8,960 bases of DNA. Origin: an uncultured Oscillospiraceae bacterium (GTDB lineage Bacteria > Bacillota > Clostridia > Oscillospirales > Oscillospiraceae). A program made the position numbers and the translations under genes. Below, one piece after another: positions 1-8,960 of this stretch. The notes below the pieces were generated by a model. That model was not told the origin of the DNA and ran no database searches. It saw nothing but the letters and a program-made list of their open reading frames with translations. Position 1 is the stretch's first letter. Each line of letters opens with the position of its first letter. The DNA lies in NCBI GenBank assembly GCA_934636305.1, contig CAKUAM010000083.1:1-8960 (forward strand). Direction: 5' to 3'.

Positions 1-902
1 TGACGACAAACAGAATATAACCGTGCTGTGACAATTGCTTCAACCTTTCGGTCACCTGGCACATATGGCGGAAGTCCCATCCACTTGTCGGCTCGTCAAA
101 AATCAAAAACTACTTTTTTTCCATAATTGCCTGACAGATGGCAAGCCGCTGCCGCTGTCCGCCCGACAAGGTAAGCGGATGCCGGTCGATGCAGTCAAGC
201 AGGTCAAAGCTGCTTAGCAGATTCTCAATCTCCTGATTGGTGGCATTCGGATTGGCCGACAAGCACTCGTTAATCCCATAGCGATCCGTTCGCTTTCGGA
301 GAGACCGACAAATTCTGCCGCCGTGAATACTCTTTCGATACACCCGGCTTTCAGGTAAACGATCCGATCGGCAAGCCCATACAGATAGGACAGTCGGTGT
401 TCGGCAATCAGCACAGTATGGCCTCCCTTTTTAACGGTTTCGAGAATCTTATGGAGATGAGTTGTCGCTCGCTGCTGGACAGCTCGTAGACATTACGGTC
501 CTTCAGTCGCTCCAGATGGAAGATCCGGAAGGCTTTCTCCACCCGCTGACGGATGGTTTCCTGCGGTAAGCCGTGATTCTCCAGCCCAAAGGCCACCTCG
601 TTGGAGCTGTTCGCGGTAAAAAACTGACTGCGGGGATCCTGAAAAACCGAGGCGGCCAGCTCGCCGATCTCGCCGATACGCATTCCGGCGGTGTCCTGCC
701 CGTTCAGGCGGCAAAAGCCCTTCCGCTCTCCCTCGTAAAACTGTGGGATCAGTCCGTTGATGCACCGCAGCAGCGTGGATTTTCCGCATCCGCTGCCTCC
801 GCAAAGCACCACACAGCGTCCCGCCGGAATACTTCCGGCAGTCTGTCGAAGCACCGGGACTTTTCCCTCCGCATATTGAAATTCAAATTCAAAATCTATC
901 AT
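1..902 (-). pseudogene. Decayed tandem ATP-binding protein of an ECF-type ABC transporter (EcfA/CbiO-like, two fused ATPase domains)
   Basis: The gene would encode a cytoplasmic ATPase with two nucleotide-binding domains, energising an energy-coupling-factor importer for a vitamin, metal or heme-like substrate. It starts at the ATG at 902-900 behind an AAGGAAAGAG ribosome site. Domain 1 keeps Walker A (GGSGCGKST, residues 35-43), the Q-loop (VFQDP, 86-90) and a signature LSSSERQ (141-147). At about 467-460 the frame jumps directly to THLHKILETVKKGGHTVLIAEHR, with the H-loop His, so the whole Walker B and D-loop stretch is missing and the frame is shifted. Domain 1 homology ends near 271. Domain 2 resumes near 270 at ECLSANPNATNQE, lacking its Walker A half, and keeps LSGGQRQ (about 169-149). 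An in-frame TAG at 112-110 then precedes an intact Walker B (IFDEPTSG, 103-80), and the gene runs off the left edge. A sequencing error could explain one lesion but not all. Non-functionality is near certain; the substrate is unknown. Confidence 0.85.
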
Positions 903-974: not shown

Positions 975-1168
975 AATCCTTTTTTCGGATTTATTGCAAG
1001 GTATCGCATAGCTGCCGCCAGCCGGCGTTTGTAAAATCAAGGACCGCCTGTAAGCAGGTAAGCATTCTGCCTTCCTCCATGTGCTGATCCAGCAGCTGGC
1101 GGAAGTACCAGAACTGGGAGCCCATCAGAAGGCGGATTGCATCAGCATTTGGCGCTTTTCCATAGATA

Positions 1169-1189
1169 GCGTCAGTTGACAAGGGTATA
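1169..1189 (+). repeat. Left terminal inverted repeat of the MITE
   Basis: A 21-base end beginning GCGTCAGTTGACAAGGG directly after TA. It pairs with 1420-1440, differing at two positions. Confidence 0.88.
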
Positions 1190-1419
1190 CACGGTTTTTC
1201 ACGGGGCAAAACAACGGCCAGCGTCGTTATCCTCGTTGGCGGGCGACAGCCCGCCTGCCTCGTCTGCCTTGCTGTCCGCCGTTTATCCTCCGTGAAAAAC
1301 TCCGGAGGACTTGCCGAACGGTCTGGGACGTCGTCTGCAAGGCAGAGGACGACGGCATACTGGCGTATGTCAAGGACGATCACGCAGCAGACGGCGGGTC
1401 AGTCCCGTTCGCAAGCGTC

Positions 1420-1440
1420 TATGCCCTTGTTAACTGACGC
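1420..1440 (-). repeat. Right terminal inverted repeat of the MITE
   Basis: Its reverse complement begins GCGTCAGTTAACAAGGG and is followed outward by the duplicated TA at 1441-1442. Confidence 0.88.
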
Positions 1441-1942
1441 TATGCGAAAAGAATTCCACCGTTTGTTCCGCTTTTTGATCCATCAGTTCATACAGCATGG
1501 TTTCCATGGAACTGCCATCGCTGCGGCAGAAAAACAAAGTGCAGTCATTACGGTGCTCGGTCAGGAGCCGAAAATATACCTGTTCCTCGGCGTTTATGGC
1601 GCGGAGGATATCTTCCGGCTGTGCGCTGCGCTTTGCTTTTTCGTATTCTTCCGCGACGGGGGTAAAGAGAACCTGCATCGTCTCAAAAAAATCCTGAAGC
1701 AAACTGGCAAACAACGCGTCTTTATTCTTGTACCTTGTGTAGATTGCCCCCGTAGTAACACCGGCTTTTTCGGCGATCTTGTGTAGAGAGGCTTTCTGAA
1801 AGCCGTAAGTAAGAAACTCCGAGTATGCCGCCTGAATGATCCCATCATCAGATCATAACATAGGAAATTTCCCGTGCCAGTTTCGCTGGACTGCGTGCAA
1901 GTTTTTCTGTTCTTTTTGTTGTTCCTCATTTTTACGCTGGAA

Positions 1943-2030: not shown

Positions 2031-3620
2031 ATGAGCGTGACGGTGCAGGATATTCTGGCGCTTCCGTGCATGAACGGCGCGAGGGTTGTGGCAGGCGTTG
2101 GTGGCCTTACAAAGGTCCTGTCCTCTGTTACCGTTCTGGAATTTGCCGATGCCAACGACGTGCAGAAGGAAATGCTGTCCAACATCGACTTTTACGGCAG
2201 CGAACTCGTGATCACCGCCTTTGCAAACATCCCGGATAATATCGGGCAGCAATGCGCGAACATCCGAAGGCTGGCCGCGGTCGGCGAGGCGGGCATGGTT
2301 TTATACTACGTCGGAATTTTGATGCCGCGCGTCGACCCTGCTTTGATCGAGCTTGCGAATTCTCTCGATTTTGTTTTGATCGTGATGCCGGAAAAACGGT
2401 GGGACCTGCGCTACAGCGAGGTCATCAGCGAGGTCATGGAGGCGATCATCAAGGACCAGTCAGCGGGAGGGACTCTCCTGACCGACGTTCTGGCGCAGAT
2501 GACGCGGCTGCCCGCGCACCAGCGGACGATCGACGCCGTTCTGCGTATGGCGCGTGACCACATTCACGCTTCGCTCATCTTACTTGACCATCAGGGCCGG
2601 GCGCTGGGACAGGCAAACTGGCCGATGTCTCTGGAACTGAGCATTGCAGGTTTTCCGTATATAGAGAGCCTGATGCCCGTCACGCTGGAAAATCACCGGA
2701 CTGTGTGGCGCTGCCCAGTGAATCAGAACGACCCGCAGTCGATGGAGCTGTATCTGGTGAAGGACGGAAGCCCCATCAGCCGCGATCTTGTGCTGCAAAC
2801 GGTGGAGCTTGTCCGTCTCGCGGTCAGCCTTTGGAGCAGCAAGCACGCGGAGGTGCAGATCTCCGAGCTGGTGCGGGCGATTTTGCTGGACGAGCCGCTC
2901 AAAATGCGGCGGCTGGCCGATTTGTTCCACATCGACGTGACCTCCATTCACTCCATGTGGGTGCTTCGCCTCGAAGCTCCGGACGGCGTGCGGCAGCGGC
3001 AGGAGCTGGAGGCGTTAAAAATTCTGCGTGAGACGCTGTCTTATCGGTGCGATACCGTCATCGCGGACACCTACGAGGACTATATTGTCGGCTTCATGTC
3101 CTGGCAGAACCGGGGCGAAAACGCGCCCGGTCTGAGCAATGATCTTCTGTCCCGGCTGGAAAAGGCAAATATTCCGGCGGTTCTGGTCCGCTGCCATCGG
3201 CTGCTTCGCACCTCCGATGTCCGTCAAGCATTTCTGGTCATCAAGGAACATCTGAAGCACGCAAGACGCATTTGGCTGGCAAGACAAAGCTATTCGCTCG
3301 AAGAGGTCGAATTTGCCCGCCAGTGCCGCAAAACGATCGACAAAGGAGACGAAGCGCTGGAAGCCGTTTTGCAGCCGCTGCGCTTTTTGCAGGAATTCAG
3401 CGAAGGTTCGGAGCTCCTGAACACGCTCATCGTGTATCTTCTGGACGCTGACAGCGGAATCACACGCTGCGCGGAGCTGCTTTTCGTGCATAAGAACACC
3501 ATCAAGTACCGCATGAGCCGCATTGGCATGTGTCTTGGGTATCCGGCAGACAAGGAGCCGGAAAAATTCTATCTCTATCGCGCTGCCGCCATCCATCGCT
3601 TATTGGAGCGGTCGCAGTGA
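2031..3620 (+). CDS. PucR-family transcriptional regulator of the downstream catabolic operon
   Basis: A 529-residue cytoplasmic regulator of the PucR/CdaR type, a normal length for the family. The N-terminal PucR domain spans about residues 3-125 (VQDILALPCMNGARVVAG onward, with an ELVITAFANI segment). A central CdaR/GGDEF-like region follows to about 420. The C-terminal PucR helix-turn-helix lies at about 460-525, with putative recognition helix VHKNTIKYRMSRIG near 486-499. The start is fixed by AGGAGG at 2018-2023. Family members usually activate neighbouring genes for purine, allantoin, hydantoin or related amide breakdown when the inducer is present. Its position 173 bases upstream of the permease operon, on the same strand, fits that role. 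The inducer is unknown. The gene is intact. Confidence 0.88.
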   Translation: MSVTVQDILALPCMNGARVVAGVGGLTKVLSSVTVLEFADANDVQKEMLSNIDFYGSELVITAFANIPDNIGQQCANIRRLAAVGEAGMVLYYVGILMPRVDPALIELANSLDFVLIVMPEKRWDLRYSEVISEVMEAIIKDQSAGGTLLTDVLAQMTRLPAHQRTIDAVLRMARDHIHASLILLDHQGRALGQANWPMSLELSIAGFPYIESLMPVTLENHRTVWRCPVNQNDPQSMELYLVKDGSPISRDLVLQTVELVRLAVSLWSSKHAEVQISELVRAILLDEPLKMRRLADLFHIDVTSIHSMWVLRLEAPDGVRQRQELEALKILRETLSYRCDTVIADTYEDYIVGFMSWQNRGENAPGLSNDLLSRLEKANIPAVLVRCHRLLRTSDVRQAFLVIKEHLKHARRIWLARQSYSLEEVEFARQCRKTIDKGDEALEAVLQPLRFLQEFSEGSELLNTLIVYLLDADSGITRCAELLFVHKNTIKYRMSRIGMCLGYPADKEPEKFYLYRAAAIHRLLERSQ

Positions 3621-3641
3621 CGATGTTACAATCCATCGAAA

Positions 3642-3674
3642 CGGGCGCGGGCTGCATGTTGCAGTCCGTGCCCG
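3642..3674 (+). terminator. Strong 15-bp hairpin after the pucR-like gene
   Basis: The arms 3642-3656 and 3660-3674 pair over 15 positions, two of them G-U, around a TGT loop, 21 bases after the stop codon. The tail GCTTGCTTTGTCC is only weakly T-rich, so a terminator or leader structure is equally possible. It separates the regulator from the operon promoter. Confidence 0.5.
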
Positions 3675-3678
3675 CTTG

Positions 3679-3698
3679 CTTTGTCCAAAAGGACAAAG
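3679..3698. repeat. Perfect palindrome CTTTGTCC-AAAA-GGACAAAG
   Basis: Perfect 8-base arms around a four-base loop lie five bases beyond the larger hairpin and about 30 bases upstream of the operon's -35 region. It could be a second terminator hairpin or a dimeric operator, for example for the PucR-like protein. No second copy was found in the window to decide. Confidence 0.45.
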
Positions 3699-3728
3699 GA
3701 AGAAGGGCAATTTTCAGCCTGCGAGCCA

Positions 3729-3758
3729 TTTACTCTATCAGTTTAAAGCACTTATAAT
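3729..3758 (+). promoter_or_regulatory. Promoter of the permease-DUF917-hydantoinase operon
   Basis: A perfect -10 TATAAT (3753-3758) lies 18 bases after a weak -35 TTTACT (3729-3734). Transcription would start about 28 bases before the permease ATG. The weak -35 next to a strong -10 suits an activator-dependent promoter. A ribosome site GAAGG (3781-3785) follows. Confidence 0.55.
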
Positions 3759-3793
3759 ATGCCATATTCTTTGACAGAGAGAAGGTTCTCCAA

Positions 3794-5113
3794 ATGGAAA
3801 AACAAAGCACCGGATTTGAAATCAAGCCCGAACAGCGGCAAAACTGGACGTCCATCGCGATGGTCTGGGCCGGCGGCATGATCTGCGTGCCGTGCCTGAT
3901 GATCGGCGGCGTATTGAGCTCGGGCGGTCTGTCGATCCTCGAGATCGTACTTTCAATCCTCATTGGCTACGGTCTGATCTGTGCGTACATGATCTTCATC
4001 GGCATGCAGGCCTGCGACACGGGCCTTCCGGTCTCCGTCATGGCGGAAGGTGCGCTTGGCAAGCAGGGCGCGCGCTACGTCATCAGTACGATTCTGGCAA
4101 TTGCCTGCGTCGGCTGGTTCGGCATCCAGTCCGCGACCTGCGGCAGCGCGTTTGCGTCCATGATCGCCTCCATGATGGGACAGTCTGCTCCCGGCAATGC
4201 GATGGTCATTATCTGCACGATCGTCTGGGGCGTTATCATGCTGATTACGGCCTGTGCCGGGTTCAAGGGGCTCAAGTGGCTCAACTACATCGCCGTTCCT
4301 CTGCTGGTTATCGTCTGCCTCTACGGCATTATCGCCGGTATTCTCGCGCATGACGGCGGCGCTACGATCGCAAACTACGCTCCCGCAGAATCCTCCGGTC
4401 TGGTCTTTGGCATTTCCATGACGGTAGCGTCCTTCGCCCTCGGCGGCGTTATTTCCGCAGACTACTGCCGTTACGCCAAGAGCCGCGGCGATGTTGTCAA
4501 GTCCTCGATCGTCGGCGTGATCCCGGCAGGCCTGTTTATGCTGCTGACCGGCGCGGTCATGAGCATCATCACAGGACAGTATGATATTTCCGCGATTCTG
4601 GCAAATCTCGGCGTGCCCATTCTGGGTCTGGTTGCGCTGGTGCTTGCCACGTGGACGACGAACGTCACCAACGCCTACTCCGGCGGCCTGGCGCTGAGTA
4701 ACCTTTTGGGCTTTGACGAGAGCAAGTTCAAGATCACGACCGGCATCGCCGGTGCGATCGGCACGGTGCTGGCGGCGTTCGGCTTACTCAACGCCTTCCA
4801 GGGCTTCTTATCGCTGATGTCCGGTCTCATTCCGCCGCTGGCAGGTGTTCTGATCGCGCACTACTGGATCATCTGCGGGGGCAAGCGTGAAAACTTCCGC
4901 ATTGGCGGCAATCTGTCTGCCAGCGGTATGATCGCATTTGTCGTTGGCGCCCTGGTCGCCTGCATCACGGGCGGCACGTTCGCAAACTTCCCCGGTCTGG
5001 TCGCCGCCGTGCCCTTCCTGAACACGCCGTTCTTTGTGGGGCCGGTCAATGGCATCGTTGTCTCCCTTGTGATCTATGTCCTTCTGGCAAAAATTCTGCC
5101 GGAGAAAACCTGA
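3794..5113 (+). CDS. NCS1-family permease (cytosine/hydantoin-type, CodB-like)
   Basis: A 439-residue inner-membrane transporter of the nucleobase:cation symporter-1 family, slightly longer than typical CodB. After a 17-residue soluble start, twelve hydrophobic segments can be counted, at about 21-42, 46-73, 94-119, 136-157, 166-186, 202-225, 240-262, 273-300, two between 315 and 360, 377-395 and 412-435. The opening NWTSIAMVWAGGMICVP and the FALGGVISADYCRYAK loop (about 215-230) are typical of cytosine-permease-like members. The family imports cytosine, hydantoin, allantoin, uracil or thiamine-like rings by Na+ or H+ symport. Linkage to DUF917 and hydantoinase genes favours a hydantoin-like or other cyclic amide substrate over cytosine, and there is no cytosine deaminase here. 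The gene is intact; the substrate is inferred. Confidence 0.88.
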   Translation: MEKQSTGFEIKPEQRQNWTSIAMVWAGGMICVPCLMIGGVLSSGGLSILEIVLSILIGYGLICAYMIFIGMQACDTGLPVSVMAEGALGKQGARYVISTILAIACVGWFGIQSATCGSAFASMIASMMGQSAPGNAMVIICTIVWGVIMLITACAGFKGLKWLNYIAVPLLVIVCLYGIIAGILAHDGGATIANYAPAESSGLVFGISMTVASFALGGVISADYCRYAKSRGDVVKSSIVGVIPAGLFMLLTGAVMSIITGQYDISAILANLGVPILGLVALVLATWTTNVTNAYSGGLALSNLLGFDESKFKITTGIAGAIGTVLAAFGLLNAFQGFLSLMSGLIPPLAGVLIAHYWIICGGKRENFRIGGNLSASGMIAFVVGALVACITGGTFANFPGLVAAVPFLNTPFFVGPVNGIVVSLVIYVLLAKILPEKT

Positions 5114-5132
5114 AAAAAGCAAAAATAAAATG

Positions 5133-5149
5133 AAGGAGTGTTTACCTTG
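5133..5149 (+). promoter_or_regulatory. Ribosome binding site that fixes a TTG start for the DUF917 gene
   Basis: AAGGAG (5133-5138) lies eight bases before TTG (5147-5149). The in-frame GTG at 5138 overlaps the Shine-Dalgarno itself and cannot be the start. The ATG at 5130 is in another frame. Translation therefore begins at TTG. Confidence 0.8.
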
Positions 5150-6238
5150 CGTAAAATCGGTATTCCCGAAATTGAAGACATTGCTCTGGGCGCGGCGCTC
5201 TTGGGCGCAGGCGGCGGCGGAGACCCGTATGTAGGAAAGCTTGTCGCTATCGGTGCGGTGCAGGAATGCGGCCCTGTCACGATGATGGACCCGGATGAGG
5301 TTCCGGACGACGCTTTGATCGTTCCCATCGCCATGATGGGTGCACCCACCGTCCTCTGCGAGAAGGCAATCGGCGGTGACGAATATAAGACCCTGTACGA
5401 AACTGTCTCCACCTTCTACGGAAAGCCCATCTACGCCTTTATGCCCATTGAAGCCGGCGGCGTCAACTCCATGCTGCCGATTGCCGCGGCGGCACGTCTG
5501 GGGCTCCCACTGGTTGACTGCGACGGGATGGGTCGGGCGTTCCCCGAGCTGCAAATGGTCACCTTTACCATTGGCGGCGGCTCTGCGACCCCGATGGCGC
5601 TGGTCGATGAAAAGGGCAACTCCTGCATCTTCCGCACCGTCACGAACAAATGGACAGAAGAACTTGCCCGCGCGGTCACGATGGCGTGTGGCGGCTCGGT
5701 GTCGGTTTCTCTTTACGCGATGGAAGGAAAATTTATGAAGCAGTATGGCGTCCGCGGCATCGTCACCCGCAGCCAGACGCTGGGCGCTGCCATCCGCAAC
5801 GTGAAGGAAGCGACAGACAAGACCCCGGAGGAAGCTTTTTTGGAGATCACCGAGGGCTATAAGCTCTTCAAGGGGAAAATCTCCGATGTGCTGCGCGAGG
5901 TGCGCAATGGCTTTAACTTTGGCAAGGTCGTTCTCGACGGCATCGGCGACGACAAGGGAAAATCCGCTTATGTGGAGTTCCAGAACGAAAATCTGACCGC
6001 CGTGGTAGACGGAAAGATGCTGGCCACGACGCCAGACCTCATCTGTCTGGTCGACACCGAGACCTTCACGCCGATTCCCACGGACGCGCTGAAATACGGA
6101 AAACGTGTCATGGTCGTCGGTCTGAAGTGCTTCCCCCTGTGGAGAACAAAGGAAGGTCTGGATCTGGTTGGGCCTCGTTACTTTGGTGTGGATACGGACT
6201 ATATTCCGCTTGAAAAACGCTGCAAAGGAGGTCTTTGA
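5147..6238 (+). CDS. DUF917 / S-methyl-thiohydantoin desulfurase-like protein
   Basis: A 363-residue cytoplasmic protein that covers the DUF917 family at full length, using a TTG start. Family hallmarks are the glycine-rich N-terminus LLGAGGGGDPY (residues 18-28), the PIEAGGVNSM segment (100-109) and LVDCDGMGRAFPELQM (122-137). The C-terminal part, from about 230, matches the second domain of the family. Relatives are annotated as S-methyl-thiohydantoin desulfurase or of unknown function, and nearly always sit beside a HyuA-like gene. The gene follows the permease after 33 bases and ends two bases before the next start, so it is co-transcribed and probably translationally coupled. A role in processing a five-membered cyclic amide with its HyuA-like neighbour is likely. 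The desulfurase reaction is family-level knowledge and is not shown for this protein. Confidence 0.85.
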   Translation: MRKIGIPEIEDIALGAALLGAGGGGDPYVGKLVAIGAVQECGPVTMMDPDEVPDDALIVPIAMMGAPTVLCEKAIGGDEYKTLYETVSTFYGKPIYAFMPIEAGGVNSMLPIAAAARLGLPLVDCDGMGRAFPELQMVTFTIGGGSATPMALVDEKGNSCIFRTVTNKWTEELARAVTMACGGSVSVSLYAMEGKFMKQYGVRGIVTRSQTLGAAIRNVKEATDKTPEEAFLEITEGYKLFKGKISDVLREVRNGFNFGKVVLDGIGDDKGKSAYVEFQNENLTAVVDGKMLATTPDLICLVDTETFTPIPTDALKYGKRVMVVGLKCFPLWRTKEGLDLVGPRYFGVDTDYIPLEKRCKGGL

Positions 6239-6240
6239 TC

Positions 6241-7794
6241 ATGTATAAACTTGGTATTGACGTAGGCGGCACCAATACGGACGCCGTTTTGATTGATGAA
6301 AATCTGCACGTTGTCACTTCGATCAAGCAGCACACGACGGCAAATATCTATGACGGCATTTTGAACGCCGTTCACGCAGTTTTGCAGCAGTCCGGCGTCG
6401 ACCGCAAGGACATCCGACAGGCGATGCTGGGCACGACCCAGTGCACCAACGCCATCGTTGAACGAAAGAACTTAGCGCCCATCGGCATTCTGCGCATTGG
6501 CGCCCCTGCGTCGCGTGGCATTCCACTGATGGTCGACTGGGCGGAGGATCTCAAGAAAATCGCGGTCAAAACCGCCATTGTAGGCGGCGGTTTTGAGTAT
6601 GACGGCCGGGAACTGGCTCCCTTTGACGTAGCCGCTGCGACCGAGTTCTTTGAAGACCTGAAAAAAGAGAACGTGAAGTCCGTCGCCATTTCCTGCGTGT
6701 TCTCCACAGTTCGCAACGATCATGAACTGGCCGCCGCCAAACTGTGCAGGGAAGTGATGGGTGAAGACGTTCATGTGTCCATTTCCAGCGAAATTGGCTC
6801 CATGGGTCTCATTGAGCGCGAGAACGCCACAATTTTGAACGCTGCGCTTTACAAGGTCGCGCATTCCTTTACAGAGGGCTTTGCGCAGTCGCTGGCGGAC
6901 GAAGGCGTCACCAACGCGCAAATCTACCTTTCGCAGAACGACGGCACGCTGATGACGATGGACTATGCCCGCCGCTATCCGATCCTCACCATCGCGTGCG
7001 GTCCTACCAACTCCATCCGCGGCGCGTGCTATTTAAGCCAGCTCAAAAACGCGATCGTCATCGACGTCGGCGGCACGACCACTGATCTTGGCGTGATTCA
7101 GAACGGCTTCCCCAGAGAGTCCGGCGTCGCCGTTACCATCGGCGGCGTGCGCACAAATTTCCGCATGCCAGACGTGGTATCCATCGGTCTTGGTGGCGGC
7201 TCCATTGTCCGCCAGCAGCCGGACGGCAAGGTAACGGTCGGTCCCGACTCTGTCGGCTACCAGATCACCGAAAAAGCGCTCTGCTTTGGCGGCGACGTCT
7301 GCACGGCGACGGATATTGCGGTGCGCCTTGGCATGACGGAGCTGGGCGACAAGACGCTTGTGGCGGGCATTGACGAAGCGTTTGCTCAAAAGGCACTGGC
7401 AGCCATCCGCGCCCTGTGCGAGGACTCCATCGACGCGATGAAGGTCTCTTCTGAGGATGTAGACGTCATCTTGGTTGGCGGCGGCTCTATTGTCCTGCCC
7501 GAAGACCTTGCCGGTGCAAAGAGCGTCACCAAGCACGAGTATGGCGGTGTTGCCAACGCGATCGGTTCCGCGATCTCCAAGGTGAGCGGCACGTATGAGC
7601 AGCTCATCGACTACAACGAGATCCCGCGCGACGAAGCGCTGGAAAAGGCGCGGGCAGAGGCCGTCGAGCTTACCGTCGCCGCCGGTGCGATTCGGGAAAC
7701 GGTCGAAATCGTCGACGCAGAGGATGTGCCGCTTCAGTATTATCCCGGCAATACTGCCCGCGTGAAGATCAAGGCGGCTGGCGATCTGGCGTAA
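6241..7794 (+). CDS. Hydantoinase/oxoprolinase family protein, short HyuA-like form
   Basis: A 517-residue protein with the actin-like ATPase fold of HyuA/5-oxoprolinase. The phosphate-1 loop is GIDVGGTNTD (5-14), GTTQCTN lies at 64-70, phosphate-2 is IVIDVGGTTTDLG (272-284), and IGLGGGSIV (315-323) and LVGGGS (411-416) line the nucleotide site. The ATG at 6241 is chosen because AGGAGG (6226-6231) lies nine bases upstream; a TTG at 6235 would leave only three. The protein is much shorter than ATP-dependent N-methylhydantoinase A, since it lacks the long C-terminal region, and no HyuB gene follows. The family uses ATP to phosphorylate and open cyclic amides such as hydantoin or 5-oxoproline. 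In this short subclass the partner is probably the DUF917 product. The substrate is unknown. Confidence 0.87.
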   Translation: MYKLGIDVGGTNTDAVLIDENLHVVTSIKQHTTANIYDGILNAVHAVLQQSGVDRKDIRQAMLGTTQCTNAIVERKNLAPIGILRIGAPASRGIPLMVDWAEDLKKIAVKTAIVGGGFEYDGRELAPFDVAAATEFFEDLKKENVKSVAISCVFSTVRNDHELAAAKLCREVMGEDVHVSISSEIGSMGLIERENATILNAALYKVAHSFTEGFAQSLADEGVTNAQIYLSQNDGTLMTMDYARRYPILTIACGPTNSIRGACYLSQLKNAIVIDVGGTTTDLGVIQNGFPRESGVAVTIGGVRTNFRMPDVVSIGLGGGSIVRQQPDGKVTVGPDSVGYQITEKALCFGGDVCTATDIAVRLGMTELGDKTLVAGIDEAFAQKALAAIRALCEDSIDAMKVSSEDVDVILVGGGSIVLPEDLAGAKSVTKHEYGGVANAIGSAISKVSGTYEQLIDYNEIPRDEALEKARAEAVELTVAAGAIRETVEIVDAEDVPLQYYPGNTARVKIKAAGDLA

Positions 7795-8241: not shown

Positions 8242-8668
8242 ATGGCAAGCTGCACCCTTTTAGATCCTCCATTGGAATAAATGCAGCCGTATTTGCTGTG
8301 GCCCAGATCCGTCGTCCGAGGTCTTCGTGTGGGAGCAAGTTGTCGCCAATCTCTGCATGTTCAACAATTCTTTCAATCAACTTAATTTCATTGACTGCGC
8401 TTCTATAATATGTGCGTTCTGTACATTCACCCAGTGCGTCGATAAACGTCTCACATTCCGAAAGAAGAGTATCAGCAGTTAGACTCTCATTTTCTGGAGC
8501 CGCAATAGAGAAGGCATCAGAGACGAAGAATAATTCAAATGCAAGATTGCATACTATCGTTTTCATCATTGATTCTTCATCAATCAATCGAACAATTGAC
8601 CACCACTTTTCCTTTACTTGCGCAAAGCGATCTCGTGCAGCATTACCTGCTGAATAGTTGATATCCAT
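8240..8668 (-). CDS. Hypothetical protein, 142 codons, in mobile-element debris
   Basis: I do not recognise this protein. It starts at an ATG at 8668-8666 behind a weak AAAGAGAG sequence that touches the start codon, and ends inside the bidirectional terminator. The composition is soluble and acidic, with an amphipathic stretch rich in Glu, Ile and Leu (about residues 75-110) and no signal peptide or clear membrane segment. The DNA is visibly more AT-rich than the central operon. Its first 18 codons overlap the end of the serine recombinase remnant in another frame. The frame also stays open upstream (TLERE before the Met), so it may be the 3' part of a longer gene that was cut when it joined the recombinase. 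It may or may not be expressed. Confidence 0.5.
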   Translation of the reverse strand: MDINYSAGNAARDRFAQVKEKWWSIVRLIDEESMMKTIVCNLAFELFFVSDAFSIAAPENESLTADTLLSECETFIDALGECTERTYYRSAVNEIKLIERIVEHAEIGDNLLPHEDLGRRIWATANTAAFIPMEDLKGCSLP

Positions 8669-8960
8669 CTCTCTTTCAAGTGTTTTTTGTATTGCGTTTC
8701 ATTCGCATTGCGCTCGGCGATGATGTTCTGAATTTCCTCCAGCCGTGCCTGCCGGGAGCCGTCCTGGTGGATGCTCTCCTGAATCGCTGCAATGCGGCGG
8801 TTAAGCTGCTCGATCTGATCGGAGATGCCTTTGAATTCATCCTCGCTGCTTTCCACATCCTTTCCGGCCGCGACGGTTTCGTTGACCAGTTCCAGCATCC
8901 GTTTGTTCAGCGTGTCGATGCGGCGCGTGAGCAGGTCGATTTCCTCCGAACCGCCATTTA
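8614..8960 (-). pseudogene. Large serine recombinase, C-terminal coiled-coil region, 3' end replaced
   Basis: The frame is open from the right window edge. It reads NGGSEEIDLLTRRIDTLNKR, then a stretch with DVESSEDEFKGISDQIEQL and NRRIAAIQES, then a coiled coil to NANETQYKK. This is the C-terminal region following the recombinase and zinc-ribbon domains in large serine recombinases of Clostridial transposons and ICEs. Family members normally finish with a YDDSIVRQMIECIKV-type segment ending in a glycine-rich tail. Here the protein instead changes to HLKERWISTIQQVMLHEIALRK and stops at 8614, so homology is lost at the A6 tract (8683-8688). The catalytic N-terminus lies outside the window. The remnant is probably a damaged end of an integrated element. 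Confidence 0.7.

What the first reader, a model, noticed from the sequence alone, without database searches (positions are those of the whole stretch)
1167..1442. A 272-bp MITE splits a TetR gene, and precise excision restores the frame
Two 21-bp inverted ends (19 of 21 positions identical), a TA duplication, and no coding capacity. Removing 1167-1440 leaves one TA and joins the codons for VEFFSH directly to IYGKAPN in one frame. That gives nucleotide-level proof of insertion and of the element's true ends. It may be an undescribed MITE family of gut Clostridia.
Basis: partly seen in the sequence, partly recalled or inferred. Interest (0 to 1): 0.7.

Follow-up and report, generated by a model that had tools for sequence, protein, structure and literature searches.

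The report
Structured hairpin-arm mobile elements of Clostridia
A 272-base stretch of DNA with no gene of its own interrupts a regulator gene in an uncultured gut bacterium, and its two hairpin arms match a folding sequence found, under many different end sequences, in 98 of 391 sampled Clostridia genomes; it is likely a transposon moved by a transposase not yet identified, and its arms would work as folded RNA or single-stranded DNA.

Summary
A 272-bp non-coding element (1169-1440) lies between two TAs, with 21-nt inverted ends matching at 19 of 21 positions. In 114 of the 115 listed homologues that match both TetR pieces, the pieces abut, so a net 274 nt (element plus one TA) was gained. The gene also lacks an in-frame start, so excision alone would not mend it.

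The element's body is the larger finding. It is two inverted ~105-nt arms of one structure. A covariance model trained without the window's arms finds both (80.2 and 47.6 bits) and hits 98 of 391 Clostridia genomes. Arms sit in TA-bounded elements with at least seven end types, with one arm (158-163 nt) or two (mostly 274-285 nt). Pairing covaries (0.77 against 0.22 shuffled), and the purine-rich strand folds better in 40 of 43 arm clusters. One family has ten copies in one genome, 41-67 ends in three sister genomes, and element-free orthologous sites in ten relatives.

No IS630 (DDE_3) transposase was found in ten genomes with such elements, and no autonomous partner with these ends was recognised. 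Best reading: a MITE-like, non-autonomous transposon carrying a conserved, strand-specific folding module. Its mover and the arms' function are inferred. The papers searched gave no earlier description.

The parts
1167..1168 (.). TA, left copy of the target duplication
   Evidence: net gain of 274 nt against intact TetR homologues, 114 of 115 abut
1167..1193 (+). left terminal inverted repeat, 27 nt with its TA (TAGCGTCAGTTGACAAGGGTATACACG)
   Evidence: 24 of 27 match the right end; same layout as the ends of related two-arm elements
1195..1298 (-). arm 1: ~104-nt hairpin module; the purine-rich, better-folding strand is the minus strand
   Evidence: model R3, trained without the window's arms: 80.2 bits, E 1.9e-19 at 1196-1298 minus; -53.2 against -46.6 kcal/mol for the other strand
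1299..1310 (.). spacer between the arms
   Evidence: arm limits from model R1
1311..1414 (+). arm 2: second copy of the module, inverted; purine-rich strand is the plus strand
   Evidence: R3: 47.6 bits, E 2.4e-10 for its inner part 1329-1396 plus; full limits from R1; -46.2 against -37.4 kcal/mol
1416..1442 (-). right terminal inverted repeat, 27 nt with its TA
1441..1442 (.). TA, right copy of the target duplication
1442..1852 (-). TetR-family regulator, 5' piece (137 codons, no in-frame start codon)
991..1167 (-). TetR-family regulator, 3' piece (58 aa and stop)
   Evidence: 115 of 120 listed homologues match it

Best explanation
A 272-bp element without a gene, bounded by 27-nt inverted ends and a duplicated TA, sits in a TetR gene whose close relatives lack it, and it is likely a non-autonomous transposon moved by a transposase supplied in trans, while its two inverted ~105-nt arms are copies of a conserved folding module whose purine-rich strand is predicted to act as folded RNA (or single-stranded DNA). 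Shown: ends, target duplication, insertion against intact homologues, dispersal of related families, element-free orthologous sites, shared arm structure with covariation, and one-strand bias. Inferred: cut-and-paste movement by a TA-targeting transposase; that this transposase acts on the ends alone; that the arms work when read-through transcription exposes the purine-rich strand, one arm per strand in two-arm elements. The arm core on that strand is CAAGG..GACGAC/AACG-type: single Watson-Crick pairs alternating with G.A mismatches, capped by a short hairpin, on a long freely varying stem.
For: Insertion. Ten copies of one family in G306, 274-276 nt, 90-98.5% identical, TA at both ends, different flanks; 44, 41 and 67 ends in sisters G398, G399, G401, and 0 in five other relatives. 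Element-free sites: at two G306 insertion sites the ten closest relatives with both flanks aligned leave 8-229 bp and 12-114 bp, too short for 275 bp (coordinates; stretches). Arms: 9 arms, 21 of 29 pairs changed on both sides; 40 arms, covariation 0.773 against 0.216 (sd 0.016) shuffled and 0.147-0.227 slid, 86.9% of cells paired against 55.2%. R3, trained without window or Extibacter-type arms, finds the window's arms and 98 of 391 genomes at E <= 0.001. Independent of the model, 56 of 64 arm loci have an inverted repeat around them scoring above the 95th percentile of 205 displaced controls. One-strand bias: purine strand folds better in 40 of 43 clusters with RNA and with DNA parameters; G.T(U) wobbles 62 on it against 22 on the other, 31 against 7 among 20 arms under 62% identity.
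Against: No transposase identified; DDE_3 absent from 10 of 10 genomes tested. No copy of the window's own sequence was found elsewhere; only ends matched by BLAST in the fetched loci, and its genome is not held. R3's training arms were harvested with R1, which contained the window's two arms among nine, so the test is not fully independent. No expression data. The purine strand shows no preferred orientation to neighbouring ORFs (8 sense, 14 antisense, crude ORF calls), which speaks against a simple cis role in mRNA. 8 of 64 arm loci show no inverted ends above the control. In the G306 empty sites the spacers are too diverged to show a single TA.
Confidence: 0.62

Rival explanations
1. An ordinary MITE of the IS630/Tc1-mariner group: ends cut from an IS630, TA target, arms without any role of their own.
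For: TA duplication; several related families have CTAG at the ends or target; from memory, IS630 prefers CTAG and Correia-type ends also carry TTAACAA.
Against: PF13358 in 0 of 10 genomes with related elements, while the same search rang in 3 of 14 control genomes; the ends of G306 form ten 274-276-nt pairs and two stray singles, no longer pair; the arms are conserved across different ends.
Confidence: 0.3
2. The arms are read as single-stranded DNA hairpins during transposition or replication, not as RNA.
For: DNA parameters also favour the purine strand, 40 of 43; two-arm elements give each DNA strand exactly one foldable arm; no orientation bias to genes.
Against: Different end types share the arm, so it would have to serve movers of different specificity; the fold difference is larger with RNA parameters (-6.8 against -3.4 kcal/mol), a weak point because the scales differ.
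Confidence: 0.28
3. The stems stay complementary only because long palindromes correct themselves by template switching; there is no selected fold.
For: Long near-perfect stems; the outer stem sequence is free to vary; arm deletions are frequent.
Against: Self-correction predicts equal G.T and A.C mismatches; observed 62 to 22. It does not explain the conserved unpaired core or the switch between G.A pairs (24 of 40 arms) and Watson-Crick pairs (10 of 40) at the same two positions.
Confidence: 0.12
4. The arms are two-way transcription terminators brought in by insertion.
For: Strong hairpins in intergenic space.
Against: The arm consensus has no T-run behind the stem (by eye; the terminator scan was not run); the conserved core is inside the stem, not at its foot.
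Confidence: 0.08

Closest known systems
Correia/NEMIS-type and other bacterial MITEs (review PMC10969869, passages read)
   Same: Short, non-coding, inverted ends, target duplication, transcripts predicted to fold; RNase III processing is reported there for Correia.
   Different: Here a separate, conserved arm module is shared by families with unrelated ends across Clostridia; the review passages give no such module and the word-start 'clostrid' does not occur in its main text.
Bacillus cereus repeats bcr1-bcr18 (PMC3446304, PMC6542083, passages read)
   Same: Intergenic repeats of 100-400 bp, some MITE-like, some with conserved secondary structure and transcribed.
   Different: Described there for the B. 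cereus group, mobility tied to a TTTAT motif; the present elements have TA and inverted ends. No sequence comparison with bcr elements was made.
GTAG- and CGTC-tagged REPs with RAYT transposases (PMC3733652, abstract, section 6 and passages read)
   Same: Folding palindromes often paired head to head; CGTC REPs lack a known transposase.
   Different: REPs are 20-40 bp; Firmicutes and Clostridia do not occur in that text by word search. RAYT genes were not searched here.
Palindromic candidate structured RNAs of the human microbiome (PMC8040213, section 8 and passages read)
   Different: The four examples named are in Bacteroidetes. Its supplementary tables were not open to me, so overlap with this arm cannot be excluded.
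Stem-loop families Clop-1, Clot-1 and Clot-3 of C. perfringens and C. tetani (PMC2267715, passages read)
   Same: Repeated folding sequences of 74-93 bp in Clostridia.

Membership tests
MITE (general) | short, no coding capacity | tested here: met
   272 bp, no ORF of 60 aa wholly inside
MITE (general) | terminal inverted repeats and target duplication | tested here: met
   24 of 27 nt, TA duplication by comparison with intact TetR
MITE (general) | multi-copy, dispersed | tested here: inconclusive
   met for related families; not testable for the window's own genome, which is not held
MITE (general) | moved by an autonomous element with the same ends | tested here: inconclusive
   none recognised in G306 with up to 3 mismatches, nor in the listed part of the sister genomes; genomes may be incomplete
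IS630/Tc1-mariner MITE | TA target duplication | tested here: met
   46 of 50 pattern-defined related elements have TA at both ends, partly built into the patterns
IS630/Tc1-mariner MITE | IS630 (DDE_3) transposase in the same genome | tested here: not met
   PF13358 in 0 of 10 genomes with related elements; the window's own genome not tested
REP/BIME (GTAG or CGTC) | 20-40 bp palindromes | tested here: not met
   arms of about 105 nt within TA-bounded elements
REP/BIME (GTAG or CGTC) | RAYT (Y1 transposase) gene | not tested
   no search for PF01797 was run
known Rfam family | match at gathering score | tested here: not met
   window 0 matches at gathering; permissive searches of the element and of four related loci gave only sub-threshold microRNA models

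The most novel reading that the evidence does not exclude
The arm is a mobile structural RNA device: a ladder of Watson-Crick and G.A pairs, read from the purine-rich strand, that transposons with different ends and different movers across the Clostridia have independently kept or picked up because it makes insertions tolerable to the host, for example by recruiting a host protein or by suppressing polarity on the interrupted transcript.
Probability: 0.28. Interest if true: 0.85.

Novelty: new variant of a known kind. Interest (0 to 1): 0.63.

Why it matters
Small non-coding mobile elements in bacteria are usually treated species by species and as transposon remnants. Here one folding module recurs under many different ends in a quarter of the sampled Clostridia genomes, with covariation and a strand bias that selfish filler would not show. 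If right, it links many orphan repeats of gut bacteria into one superfamily, gives a profile that annotates them, and poses two testable questions: what moves them, and what the folded strand does. Arm-less derivatives within the same genomes are ready-made controls.

Tried and rejected
Palindromic target: the window's TA lies in an imperfect palindrome (CTTTTCcATAgaTATgcGAAAAG), but over 46 related sites flank complementarity was 149 against 159.8 expected (p 0.86), so this is chance. Autonomous candidates: an 886-bp end pair in G032 holds one 255-aa ORF that looks by eye like a membrane protein. Two of three 3.6-kb end pairs in sister genomes hold what look by eye like a response regulator, a sensor kinase and adenylosuccinate synthetase. 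The third (L181) was fetched but its ORFs were not listed. No family scan was run on these. End pattern with up to 2 mismatches: 6 of 391 genomes match, but outside G001 only single 2-mismatch hits, and the reversed control also hit once, so the end sequence alone has no reach. Plasmids, phages and viral contigs: no match. Finding the window's genus by its PucR protein: best 38% in 291 genomes, none closer in 22. Orientation to genes: no bias. Dropped rows: 8 of the 93 arm matches (five repeat copies of loci already held, one cut at a contig end, two opposite-strand self-matches), leaving 85 arms in 43 clusters; A3 holds 37 of those 43 representatives plus three further members. L167 was fetched but left out of the alignment. 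Only 20 of 59 papers were listed.

Full report
1. The element. The window shows TA at 1167-1168 and 1441-1442 with 272 nt between, inverted ends matching at 19 of 21 nt (24 of 27 with the TA), and no ORF of 60 aa or more wholly inside. Folded as RNA it lies 8.1 standard deviations below shuffles.

2. The insertion. The TetR reading frame on the minus strand is cut by the element. The 5' piece (137 codons) has 679 homologues, most of the 120 listed being 202 aa long and 85-93% identical. All 120 listed match this piece, 115 also match the 58-aa 3' piece, and in 114 of 115 the pieces abut exactly. The net gain is 274 nt, which is the element and one TA. The gene has a second lesion: 97 of 97 homologues of 202 aa have seven more residues at the N-terminus, whereas in the window a stop lies just upstream and no start is in frame. 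Intact copies therefore exist in abundance, and excision alone would not restore this one.

3. Relatives by ends. The pattern TAGCGTCAGTTNACAAGGG occurs in 9 stretches of the species genomes, in three named organisms: Extibacter muris DSM 28560, Lachnospiraceae bacterium CE91-St61 and Dorea sp. D27. Two stretches hold complete 270-nt elements between TAs with the same ends but a different interior. A search of these three genomes with one such element gave 12, 12 and 6 matches, some of them one place on both strands.

4. The arms. Comparing the interiors shows one ~105-nt arm twice in inverted orientation. Nine arms from window, Extibacter and CE91-St61 align, with 21 of 29 predicted pairs changed on both sides. 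Model R1 from these finds 29 of 391 Clostridia genomes at E <= 0.001. Over 72 sources it gives 93 arm matches, of which I kept 85, in 43 clusters at 85% identity. Forty purine-strand arms were aligned. The given structure pairs 86.9% of cells against 55.2% in shuffles; covariation is 0.773 against 0.216 (sd 0.016) shuffled and 0.147-0.227 when slid; 20 of 21 pairs change on both sides, which 16 of 500 shuffles also reach. The structure came from the same alignment, which favours it. The core alternates single Watson-Crick pairs with G.A mismatches: 99 of 160 cells are G.A against 83.2 shuffled (0 of 2000). At the same two positions 24 of 40 arms have tandem G.A and 10 of 40 have Watson-Crick pairs.

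5. A test without the window's arms. R3 was built from 32 arms with the window and the Extibacter-type arms left out. It finds the window's arms at 80.2 bits (E 1.9e-19) and 47.6 bits (E 2.4e-10, inner part), each on the predicted strand. Caveat: those 32 arms had been collected with R1, which contained the window's arms. R3 matches 98 of 391 genomes of the class sample. Its E-values are rough by the tool's own statement. At face value, 391 searches at E <= 0.001 would give about 0.4 false genomes. An E. coli control was not possible.

6. Different ends, one arm. The inverted ends are not part of the arm model, so they test it. Of 64 arm loci with room on both sides, 56 have flanking inverted repeats scoring above the 95th percentile of 205 displaced controls, 48 above the 99th and 38 above the maximum; 8 do not exceed the 95th. 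Seven end types were defined by pattern; 46 of 50 elements so found have TA at both ends, partly because the patterns begin with TA. One-arm families are 158-163 nt (22 of 22). Two-arm families are mostly 274-285 nt. Internally deleted forms of 43-257 nt also occur, including 46-nt arm-less forms in CE91-St61 and G032.

7. Mobility. G306 holds ten copies of one two-arm family, 90-98.5% identical, in different flanks. Sister genomes G398, G399 and G401 hold 44, 41 and 67 ends; five other relatives hold none. An 18-kb stretch of G306 with two elements was compared with 20 relatives. In the ten where both flanks align closely, the interval at the site is 8-229 bp and 12-114 bp, too short for the 275-bp element. 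Nine and six of the fetched stretches were aligned; the spacers are too diverged to show a single TA.

8. Strand. The purine-rich strand folds better in 40 of 43 clusters with RNA and with DNA parameters. Wobble pairs in the outer stem are 62 on that strand against 22 on the other (p 1.5e-5); 50 to 20 under 70% identity and 31 to 7 under 62%. R1 was trained on the other strand, which would bias against this. G.T pairs are tolerated in DNA as well, so RNA and single-stranded DNA are not separated. No orientation bias to neighbouring ORFs was seen (8 sense, 14 antisense).

9. The mover. PF13358 was found in 0 of 10 genomes with related elements. The ends of G306 form only the ten pairs and two single 3-mismatch hits. 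Long end pairs elsewhere enclose what look like ordinary genes. Other transposase families were not searched.

10. Literature. Ten paper searches gave no description of this module. I read passages or sections of six papers and saw only listings of the rest. Supplements were not open to me, and subscription journals are mostly not held. Rfam has no match at gathering.

11. Verdict. The finding is right about the element and its ends. The larger point is a superfamily of MITE-like elements with a shared, strand-specific folding arm. Its mover and function are open.

Noticed in passing
window 110-902, minus strand: The ABC-transporter ATPase gene beside the TetR is split over several frames (ORFs 110-343, 214-414, 408-902; ABC_tran matched in 408-902), so the whole TetR/transporter stretch looks decayed or poorly assembled.
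   Followed up: partly
window 1850-1870: The TetR gene has no in-frame start; all 97 homologues of 202 aa have seven more N-terminal residues.
   Followed up: yes
window 2031-7794: Apparently intact run: PucR regulator, cytosine/purine-type permease, S-Me-THD-like (two domains) and hydantoinase/oxoprolinase genes.
   Followed up: no
window 8614-8958, minus strand: Coiled-coil C-terminal end of a larger protein, with only sub-cutoff Pfam matches (DUF4407, ABC_tran_CTD).
   Followed up: no
L002:735-780; L133:2333-2378: 46-nt arm-less derivatives, the two ends head to head, in two families.
   Followed up: partly
L043:1501-1523: A lone end very like the window's (TAGTGTCAGTTGACAAGGGTATT) in genome G123, with no arm found nearby.
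   Followed up: partly
G398:C24:27466-31106; G399:C77:6411-10051: End pairs of equal length (3,641 bp) in two sister genomes; the first encloses a two-component system by eye, the second was not examined.
   Followed up: partly
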